Assembly: GCF_000003855.2 (NCBI RefSeq)
Contig: NW_003101681.1
Location: 1,551,532-1,615,531, forward strand
Direction of reading: 5' to 3'
DNA length: 64,000 bases
From: Blastomyces gilchristii SLH14081
Taxonomy: Eukaryota > Ascomycota > Eurotiomycetes > Onygenales > Ajellomycetaceae
In this document: piece after piece, positions 6,002 through 7,610 of the stretch
Numbering within the stretch: the first letter of the stretch is position 1
Layout of the letters: every line of letters begins with the position of its first letter
Made by a program: the position numbers and the translations under genes
The notes under the pieces: generated by a model
Told to the model about the DNA's origin: nothing
Database searches by the model: none
The model's input: the letters and a program-made list of their open reading frames with translations, nothing else

Positions 6002-6550
6002 ATGAATGATGACACATCTTCTTCACCTTCTTATATGTCTCTGACTGTTTCCTTCTCAGCGGGTTTCTGATTGTGTTTTCTGACATGATTTTATGTGAAT
6101 GCAGATGCTGATATATTTGTTTTTATTCACATAGAATCTTTATGTATTGACAGATCTGTGTCTGTTGATGATAGTGAACCTGATGTTGCATTCTTGATTA
6201 AGAACTTGAAGAATGTGATAATGAAGGAATTGTCTGTGTCATGTGTGACTGAGTCTTTCATATCCTCTCTTACCTCTTCTGCTGCTTCTTTCTCTACTGC
6301 TCTTCTCTCTGTCTCTTTCTCTGCCACTTCTCAATCTTCTACACTTATCTCTGTGTCTGGTTCTCCTGCTTCTGCTACCTCTGTTCCTGTAACCCTCACT
6401 TCTGCCACTCCTGGTTTTACTGTCTCTGCTTTTGTTATCAGCTCTCCCCATTTCAAGAAGATGTTGTGTAGACTTAATGAACTATCTCTTTCAGTGTGTA
6501 CACTCCCACCCTTCTTACTGACTCTCAGAATAATTTATTATATGAAGACT

Positions 6551-6619
6551 GTATATAACACAACTATCTGAAGCTCAGTTACAGATGCTGATTATTATGT
6601 TTATTTTAAATATTTATAG
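6551..6619 (+). other. Intron 1 of the antisense gene (proposed)
   Basis: Begins GTATAT, has CTGAT as possible branch site, ends TTATAG. It falls between codons. In B2 the acceptor has become AA. Without splicing the frame ends at TGA 6569. Confidence 0.45.
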
Positions 6620-6677
6620 TGAAGCAATTGTTCATTCATATCAGAGAATCATTTCTTCTCTCAACAGTGTTGAGATT

Positions 6678-6732
6678 GTAAGTCTTTTTCTTTTTCATCT
6701 TCTCTTTCTAATGCTGATTTTTCTATTCTTAG
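6678..6732 (+). other. Intron 2 of the antisense gene (proposed)
   Basis: Begins GTAAGT, a long pyrimidine run, TCTAATGCTGAT as branch region, ends TTCTTAG: 55 nt. B2 has the same 55-nt interval (43500-43554) with CTAACACTGAT and CATAG. Its first base is A, explained by one transition. Removing it keeps the two flanking frames joined. Confidence 0.6.
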
Positions 6733-7092
6733 AAAAAATTGTTATGAGTTTTACTGTGCATAAAGTTATGATATTCACAGACATCAAGAAGCTTTTCATA
6801 ACTGTAAAGTTCAATATTGTAAGAATATCTGCTCTGATGAATTCCTTCAGAATGATAGATCTATATCAGCCTATTCTCTGATATCTGTTATCTGACTTCA
6901 TGATGCAGGTGAAAGATATCTATGTTTTCAGAAATGAGAATGCGGATGTTGTACTCTTTTACACCTGCAGATGTGAGGCTTGTATGTCTTGTCTGAGATG
7001 TTGTCATGAGAATGAGCTGTTTGCATGCTGTGTTCTGCTTTCTGTATTCCCTTATATCCCTCTCTCTCTTTCTGAGGAGCCTCATGCATGTT

Positions 7093-7185
7093 GTAATTAT
7101 GTATACAATTCTAAGATCAGCAGGTGTTTATTTAATAATTGTTATCCCTGCTTTTGCAGTTTTGTACACTAATAATAGTTCTTAG
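7093..7185 (+). other. Intron 3 of the antisense gene (proposed)
   Basis: The acceptor TTCTTAG at 7179-7185 has a branch site ACTAAT about 15 nt upstream. B2 shows TACTAAC there, a perfect consensus. Donor GTAATT at 7093 keeps the frame and is present in B2. GTATAC (7101) and GTGTTT (7124) are alternatives that do not keep it. Confidence 0.4.
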
Positions 7186-7610
7186 TTACTCCAGTGCCAG
7201 AGATCATTTTAATTGAAGATGATAATGCTGCTGAGACTACTCTCTTCTGCTCTTAAGCTTCTTCTATCACTTTCTCTCTCTTCTCTGCAGGGAAGATTAT
7301 GCACACACCAGATTGTAAGTATTCAGTCTCAGATGACTCTCACTGTCATTTGTCTGATTCTGTGTCTTCTTCTTCTTCTATTTCTTTCATCTTCATTCTC
7401 TCTGCTCTGGCTTCTGATTCTGTGAGTTCTGTGCTCTTCTTCAATTTCTCTATATATATGTGTATGCATTTCTATATTAGCATTTCAGTCAATCTTGTGA
7501 TAAATGACATTAATGTCATATACAGAGTGATAGAGGAATCAGAGATGTGTGTGATATTATTGTAAGAGTGACTTATAACTCTTGAATTTCTTATAAATCT
7601 CAAGTTTTGA

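What the first reader, a model, noticed from the sequence alone, without database searches (positions are those of the whole stretch)
6002..7610. A spliced gene carried antisense to gag-pol inside a Gypsy element (family B)
Seen: on the strand opposite gag-pol, between integrase and the 3' LTR, B1 and B2 share one frame over about 460 codons. Length changes in the Ser-rich part keep frame, the first open block ends at the same Ile-TGA, and the last exon has exactly 103 codons from the internal Met in both. A 55-nt intron (GTAAGT..CTAAT/CTAAC..TAG) lies at the same place. Removing introns 1 and 2 joins the three frames in phase. Known: introns on the sense strand are lost when an element retrotransposes, while antisense introns survive, so the arrangement is self-consistent. 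Antisense ORFs are known in some plant LTR elements. Inference: an accessory, perhaps captured, gene with an N-terminal membrane segment and a Cys-rich patch.
Basis: partly seen in the sequence, partly recalled or inferred. Interest (0 to 1): 0.88.

Follow-up and report, generated by a model that had tools for sequence, protein, structure and literature searches.

The report
Spliced backwards gene in fungal retrotransposon
Many decayed copies of a fungal jumping gene carry a real, intron-containing gene written on the opposite strand, apparently related to a family of the fungus's own genes, which gives a rare foothold for asking what such backwards genes do for retrotransposons.

Summary
The genome matches Blastomyces gilchristii SLH14081. 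B1 (5380-13707) is an LTR element with gag-pol on the minus strand and a spliced gene on the plus strand between integrase and the 3' LTR. In 41 copies, 13 of 16 distinct indels in exons are multiples of three, against 13 of 56 outside (p 4e-5). Transversions favour third codon positions (36/33/56). Annotated relatives (BDCG_06430, 463 aa; BDBG_17024, 450 aa) share the frame. Corrected exons: 5868-5928, 6135-6677, 6733-7134, 7186-7610. The protein carries DUF3716, a domain also found in GC-rich sequence outside family B in this genome. A second, diverged Gypsy-like family also carries an antisense DUF3716 gene, with transversions 25/23/70 by codon position. Antisense genes between pol and the 3' LTR are known in plants and in Botrytis Boty, so this is a new variant of a known kind. 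A nuclear accessory role is likely but untested.

The parts
5380..5563 (-). 3' LTR of element B1 (184 nt); possible source of the antisense promoter (not tested)
   Evidence: matches 13524-13707, 19 transitions and 0 transversions in 184 aligned positions; flanks show a 4-nt ACAG duplication
13524..13707 (-). 5' LTR of element B1
10370..10690 (-). reverse transcriptase part of gag-pol (approximate, transferred by length from copy L045)
   Evidence: RVT_1 E 6e-10 on the sense strand of L045:2655-2972; maps the 3' part of L045 to B1
8544..8897 (-). C-terminal part of integrase (approximate, transferred from L045:4446-4799; recognised by eye, no Pfam match)
5868..5928 (+). exon 1 (61 nt, ATG start, 20 codons + 1 nt)
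   Evidence: matches the N-termini of P0001/P0002; ATG in 34 of 40 copies with letters there; no indel seen
   Evidence: GTAAGT in 36 of 40, AG in 40 of 41 copies; 18 of 24 distinct indels not 3n
   Evidence: 9 of 11 distinct indels 3n; 0 of 180 codons stop in all 52 copies (2 in at least 95%)
6678..6732 (+). intron 2, 55 nt
   Evidence: 5 of 6 distinct indels not 3n
6733..7134 (+). exon 3, with the DUF3716 domain (about 6950-7134)
   Evidence: no indel in 41 copies; PF12511 in sister copies; 0 of 133 codons stop in all 52 copies (1 in at least 95%)
7135..7185 (+). intron 3, 51 nt (the database proteins imply a 93-nt version from 7093)
   Evidence: GT in 34 of 40, TAG in 39 of 40 copies; the three distinct indels of 7093-7185 lie at 7143 and 7163
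7186..7610 (+). exon 4, acidic start, C-terminal helix, stop at 7608-7610
   Evidence: 4 of 5 distinct indels 3n; 0 of 140 codons stop in all 52 copies; helix 424-461 of P0002 is the main confident part of a poor model
42102..44383 (-). same antisense gene in element B2 (37963-44779), broken by a ~508-nt insertion at 42474-42981

Best explanation
Family B is an LTR retrotransposon of the Ty3/Gypsy kind in Blastomyces that carries, between integrase and the 3' LTR and antisense to gag-pol, a four-exon gene for a 450-480 aa DUF3716-domain protein. Supported by the data: the gene was under selection as this antisense reading frame while the element was multiplying, and a second diverged Gypsy-like family carries a related antisense gene. 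Inferred: it derives from a host DUF3716 gene taken up as genomic DNA; its introns persist because the genomic RNA is the opposite strand, so they are never spliced out. It is transcribed from a promoter in or near the 3' LTR, spliced by the host, and makes a probably zinc-binding nuclear protein that regulates the element's own cycle, in the manner proposed for plant antisense genes and HTLV HBZ. Most copies examined here are now heavily mutated by a C-to-T process.
For: Indel phase: 13 of 16 distinct exon indels are 3n against 13 of 56 outside; non-3n events 2.1 per kb of exon against 53.6 per kb outside. Transversion sites at codon positions 1/2/3 = 36/33/56 in 52 copies (p 0.023), 8.8% of exon sites against 12.8% of non-exon sites. 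No codon of exons 2-4 in the gene frame (0 of 180, 133, 140) is a stop in all 52 copies. Annotated relatives P0001 and P0002 cover 100% of the query, E 3e-182 and 6e-160; the P0001 gene is in a B-element copy at the same place and strand (L049). DUF3716 32.5 bits in the L049 exon-3 ORF. A GC-rich DUF3716 gene outside family B, L061: 53.6 bits, no match to element B1, pairwise E 7e-7 to L049 exon 3, first exon of the same 61 nt before GTAAGT (read by eye). Second family: RT and integrase pieces on one strand, DUF3716 on the other, transversions 25/23/70, p 1.6e-8. P0002 has basic clusters and no membrane segment.
Against: No transcript or protein evidence was available. Within family B the codon-position signal is modest (p 0.023; 5/8/15, p 0.06, with a minor count of two). 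Stop counts alone do not single out the antisense frame: minus-strand frames with no all-copy stop exist in exon 2 (phase 0), exon 3 (phases 0 and 1) and exon 4 (phase 1), and in the second family one gag-pol-strand frame puts its third positions on the same bases and has fewer shared stops (9 against 12), so the strand there rests on DUF3716 homology; 3 of 10 alignment gaps there are not 3n. Similarity between L061 and the B protein outside DUF3716 is weak (25% over 80 aa, E 0.014). No homolog outside Blastomyces was found in capped searches. The structure model is poor (mean pLDDT 39.8). Function is inference only.
Confidence: 0.68

Rival explanations
1. Passenger: a host DUF3716 gene was taken up by an ancestral element and merely copied, with no benefit to the element; its conservation reflects only recent common origin of the copies.
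For: Copies differ little apart from transitions (mean transversion distance of a copy to the others 0.4-1.7%), so the burst was short; no function is shown.
Against: Frame-keeping indels among copies, fewer transversions in exons than beside them and third-position excess, and a related antisense gene with strong third-position excess in a second family.
Confidence: 0.15
2. Antisense RNA is what matters: the region makes an antisense or double-stranded RNA that tunes silencing of the element, and the protein is secondary.
For: Antisense RNA of LTR elements is proposed to feed silencing (PMC7264820, parts 1 and 2 of 3 read).
Against: Constraint follows codons and exon borders rather than nucleotides.
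Confidence: 0.1
3. The selected frame is on the sense strand (an env-like or other 3' ORF) and the antisense frame is its mirror.
For: Some sense-strand frames lack all-copy stops in single exons.
Against: No single minus-strand phase lacks all-copy stops in exons 2, 3 and 4 together; the in-register sense frame would have its excess changes at first positions; splice signals and DUF3716 are on the antisense strand; the database proteins are read from the antisense strand.
Confidence: 0.03
4. Counter-defence: the DUF3716 protein protects the element against host silencing or hypermutation, rather than regulating its expression or integration.
For: Accessory genes of mobile elements often act against host defence (general knowledge); most copies here were nevertheless mutated.
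Against: No direct evidence either way; a nuclear protein fits both.
Confidence: 0.12

Closest known systems
brtn of Boty-like elements, Botrytis cinerea (Zhao et al. 2011, Virology 417:248; title seen in the reference lists of PMC8365987 and PMC4227169, paper itself not read)
   Same: antisense additional gene in a fungal Gypsy element, placed between pol and 3' LTR according to PMC7264820
   Different: Sequence, introns and domain of brtn could not be compared here; PMC4227169 reports a chromodomain in Boty-like gag-pol, none turned up in the five family B pieces scanned
Antisense ORFs of plant Gypsy elements: Grande gene23, RIRE2, Retand TRP28 (PMC7264820 parts 1-2 of 3 read; PMC11963269 passages read)
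   Same: Between pol and 3' LTR, antisense, in most copies; nuclear or nucleic-acid-binding roles proposed
   Different: The review states that aORF-like sequences are lacking outside TEs and that most origins are unknown; here the domain also occurs outside the element and the gene has three introns
HBZ of HTLV-1 (recalled; an antisense promoter in the 3' LTR of HTLV is mentioned in PMC7264820)
   Same: Spliced antisense gene near the 3' LTR of a reverse-transcribing element
   Different: No sequence relation was tested; the promoter of the B gene was not mapped
DUF3716 (PF12511) gene at G000:C1:270009 (L061)
   Same: DUF3716 core, weakly similar C-terminus, first exon of 61 nt before a GTAAGT intron (gene model by eye)
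   Different: L061 is GC-rich and lacks most of the central part of the B protein
Blastomyces Gypsy elements (PMC4595289 passages read; PMC11540331 abstract and one passage read)
   Same: The same GC-poor, Gypsy-filled genome (SLH14081)
   Different: The word antisense occurs 0 times in the main text of either paper

Membership tests
Ty3/Gypsy LTR retrotransposon (host element) | paired LTRs and RT | tested here: met
   LTRs; RVT_1
Ty3/Gypsy LTR retrotransposon (host element) | domain order PR-RT-RH-IN | tested here: inconclusive
   RT by Pfam; an integrase-like piece downstream of RT recognised by eye only, in a degraded copy
aORF-3R (antisense ORF between pol and 3' LTR) | antisense, between pol and 3' LTR | tested here: met
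aORF-3R (antisense ORF between pol and 3' LTR) | present in most copies of the family | tested here: inconclusive
   754 candidate places for part of exon 2, 40 of them scored; copies without it were not sought
aORF-3R (antisense ORF between pol and 3' LTR) | conserved as protein | tested here: met
DUF3716 (PF12511) | score above curated cut-off (22 bits) | tested here: met
   P0002 30.3, P0001 23.0; L049 exon-3 ORF 32.5, L053 37.9. Mutated copies and partial relatives may miss it: of the 6 copies one matched, at E 0.16; P0007 scored 20.8
Same lineage as brtn of Boty | sequence homology to BRTN | not tested
   brtn sequence not at hand
HBZ-type gene | promoter in the 3' LTR, spliced antisense mRNA | not testable with these tools
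   no transcript data

The most novel reading that the evidence does not exclude
A lineage of Gypsy elements in Onygenalean fungi took a multi-exon host DUF3716 gene onto its antisense strand long ago and has kept it, introns included, through element diversification as an HBZ-like regulatory gene: a fungal case in which the host source of an antisense retrotransposon gene can still be recognised.
Probability: 0.4. Interest if true: 0.75.

Novelty: new variant of a known kind. Interest (0 to 1): 0.62.

Why it matters
The origin and function of antisense additional genes in LTR elements are open questions, and a 2020 review argued against capture because no similar sequences were known outside TEs (PMC7264820). 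Here a domain shared with genes outside the element, retained introns, two element families and annotated relatives are at hand, so origin, expression and function become directly testable. It also shows how C-to-T hypermutation misleads gene models: false introns, false Cys- and Ser-rich regions.

Tried and rejected
dN/dS on family B alone: not useful, since nearly all differences are transitions from hypermutation; transversions and indel phase were used instead. Fixed-stop counts: weak on their own, because sense frames can also lack all-copy stops. Sense env-like ORF: rejected. Pfam with six degraded copies: one weak DUF3716 match (E 0.16) and one chance-level match; PDB: one match at E 0.17; NCBIfam with P0001 and P0002: none. 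Homologs outside Blastomyces: none in three searches, each capped (7988, 7991 and 455 candidates scored). AlphaFold model of P0002: too poor for a fold search, so none was run. LTR of the second family: not found in the pieces at hand. Literature: antisense/fungal/Gypsy searches, DUF3716 (0 papers), Blastomyces Gypsy.

Full report
What was checked. The window lies at G000:C2:1551532-1615531 of a 74.8 Mb genome. A database protein found with these copies, BDBG_17024 of Blastomyces gilchristii SLH14081, sits on a contig of 3,179,325 bases, the exact length of contig C7 of G000, so the genome is taken to be that strain. Element B1 runs from 5380 to 13707 between 184-nt LTRs that differ by 19 transitions and no transversion, with a 4-nt ACAG duplication at its flanks. 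Gag-pol is on the minus strand: in copy L045 the strand opposite the gene encodes reverse transcriptase (RVT_1, E 6e-10; the other four pieces scanned had no Pfam match). The finding lies on the plus strand between integrase (recognised by eye) and the 3' LTR.

Copies. A DNA search with 6095-6571 gave 754 candidate places, of which 40 were scored and matched: B1 itself and 39 others at 80-87% identity. Those 40 and B2 make the 41 copies aligned; 11 more from the protein search make 52. Differences are almost all transitions; the mean transversion distance of a copy to the others is 0.4-1.7%. The family thus expanded from close relatives and was then mutated, and within-family dN/dS says little.

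Test of coding by indels. I counted distinct indels against B1, merging those within 12 nt. In exons 13 of 16 are multiples of three; outside (5568-5867, introns, 7611-7800) 13 of 56 are; Fisher p 4.1e-5. The result holds with merging distances of 0 and 6 (p 3.6e-5 and 6.2e-5). Exons 1 and 3 show no indel. Non-3n events occur at 2.1 per kb of exon and 53.6 per kb outside. The exon borders were refined after a first look at the same alignment, so the p-value is somewhat optimistic; the first count, with exons 6130-6677, 6733-7092 and 7186-7610, gave the same 13 of 16.

Test by substitutions. Sites with a transversion in any of 52 copies: 36, 33 and 56 at codon positions 1, 2, 3 (p 0.023); 125 of 1428 exon sites (8.8%) and 103 of 805 non-exon sites (12.8%). 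With a minor count of at least two: 5, 8 and 15 (p 0.06); at least three: 3, 6 and 12 (p 0.05). The signal is modest but in the expected direction.

Test by stops. C-to-T and G-to-A mutation cannot turn a stop into a sense codon, so a true stop should be a stop in all copies. In the gene frame four codons were stops in all, or all but one, of 41 copies. Three of them (6569, 6617, 6879) show both TAG and TGA among copies, which such mutation of a true stop cannot give (at 6569 TAG occurs in one copy only); the fourth (6620) shows TGA and TAA only. With 52 copies no codon of exons 2, 3 or 4 (0 of 180, 0 of 133, 0 of 140) is a stop in all; 2, 1 and 0 are stops in at least 95%. This test alone is not decisive: some sense-strand frames also have no all-copy stop in single exons (exon 2 phase 0, exon 3 phases 0 and 1, exon 4 phase 1), but no single minus-strand phase lacks them in all three.

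Relatives. A profile of six copies found 21 proteins, all from Blastomyces (7988 candidates scored). P0002 (BDCG_06430, B. dermatitidis ER-3, 463 aa) and P0001 (BDBG_17024, 450 aa) match over the whole length. A third, P0005, keeps an extra stretch that corresponds to part of intron 1, so splicing there may vary; that stretch is not frame-kept among copies (14 of 19 indels in 6002-6129 not 3n). The P0001 gene is in a B-element copy at the same place and on the same strand (L049). The best 19-residue hydropathy is 0.98 in P0002 and 1.54 in P0001; P0002 has basic clusters at 8-11 and 367-378. Composition: P0002 Cys 1.5%, Arg 8.4%, Pro 13.4%; B1 4.6%, 2.1%, 3.2%; P0001 4.7%, 4.2%, 12.0%. Much of the Cys and Ser richness is therefore probably produced by mutation.

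Third intron. The database proteins fit a 93-nt intron from 7093. Two observations favour 7135-7185 (51 nt): the three distinct indels of 7093-7185 lie at 7143 and 7163, and the added codons extend the DUF3716 match from profile positions 2-31 (P0001, 23.0 bits) to 2-58 (L049 exon-3 ORF, 32.5 bits). GT is present at 7135 in 34 of 40 copies and at 7093 in 38 of 41, so the donor sites themselves do not decide.

Domain and origin. PF12511 (DUF3716) matches 38 places in the genome (150 of 189 candidates scored) and none in the 14 control genomes of the tool. I fetched ten of these regions: L063 and L068 are family B; L061 and L062 are GC-rich (0.47 and 0.49) and do not match element B1; L064 is a mixed region with a helicase-like piece; L069 and L070 share a 1-kb repeat; L065, L066 and L067 belong to a second repeat family. 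The copy number of L061 and L062 was not tested. The L061 protein matches L049 exon 3 at E 7e-7 over 68 aa in a pairwise comparison and the P0002 C-terminus only weakly (25% over 80 aa, E 0.014). By reading its sequence, L061 has a first exon of 61 nt before a GTAAGT intron, as in the B gene. This suggests, but does not prove, descent from such a gene with its introns.

Second family. L071 and L065 are neighbouring stretches. On one strand they carry a reverse-transcriptase piece (31% over 90 aa to that of family B, E 3e-4 in a search of four loci) and an integrase piece (Ty3 Gag-Pol, E 0.01; no Pfam match). On the other strand, downstream of integrase, lies a DUF3716 frame (34.7 bits). Twenty-two places match it, 13 at 79-100% and 9 at 68-71% identity. 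L065 against L066: 1502 of 1616 aligned bases in the same frame, transversions 25/23/70 by codon position, p 1.6e-8, with 7 of 10 gaps 3n; L065 against L067 gives 24/25/71; L066 against L067 has only four transversions. One gag-pol-strand frame would place its third positions on the same bases and has 9 stops shared by all three copies against 12 in the gene frame, so the strand is settled only by DUF3716. The L049 exon-3 ORF aligns to this frame at 20% over 131 aa, E 4e-4 in a search of three sequences. LTRs of this family were not found in the pieces at hand. An antisense DUF3716 gene thus occurs in two diverged Gypsy-like families, by common descent or by repeated uptake.

Mechanism. Supported: protein-level constraint, antisense position, introns, domain. 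Inferred: transcription from the 3' LTR side, host splicing, a nuclear zinc-binding protein, and a regulatory role. Introns survive because the element's genomic RNA is the other strand (general knowledge).

What is known. Antisense additional ORFs between pol and the 3' LTR are described in plant elements and in Boty of Botrytis, with unknown function and mostly unknown origin (PMC7264820, parts 1 and 2 of 3 read). In Retand elements 97% of clusters carry an antisense TRP28 ORF (PMC11963269, passages). The fungal brtn paper is not held; I saw only its title. Two Blastomyces genome papers hold the word antisense 0 times in their main text. Searches for antisense genes in fungal LTR elements (20 of 32, 12 of 109, 12 of 33, 8 of 40 and 3 of 3 papers listed) showed no title on such a gene in Blastomyces. 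This is a new variant of a known kind.

Noticed in passing
5380-8000 in 52 copies: The C-to-T mutation in these repeats prefers CpC and CpG (54% and 59% of letters mutated at segregating sites) over CpA and CpT (28% and 27%), unlike the CpA preference of classical RIP (the classical preference is recalled).
   Followed up: partly
42474-42981, 31496-32006, L042:875-1384: A ~508-nt repeat, 92-94% identical, inserted in B2 and elsewhere; its edge also lies beside a DUF3716-coding repeat in L069:441-566.
   Followed up: no
L069, L070 (C13:768800, C6:1769000): A ~1-kb repeat, 88% identical, that encodes another DUF3716 protein; it might be a further mobile element with this domain.
   Followed up: no
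37083-37144; repeats at 25328, 26728, 34167, 47353: The stretch reads like a tRNA gene by eye and lies in a repeat (37083-37461) related to these others; perhaps SINEs.
   Followed up: no
L049 (G000:C7:2384283-2385215): The public protein BDBG_17024 is a retrotransposon gene annotated as a hypothetical protein; its implied splice sites differ from those of the other copies near the end of exon 2 and probably at intron 3.
   Followed up: partly
L064 (C7:2207700-2213700): A DUF3716 frame near a helicase-like fragment (UvrD_C_2, E 8e-5) in a repeat-rich region.
   Followed up: no
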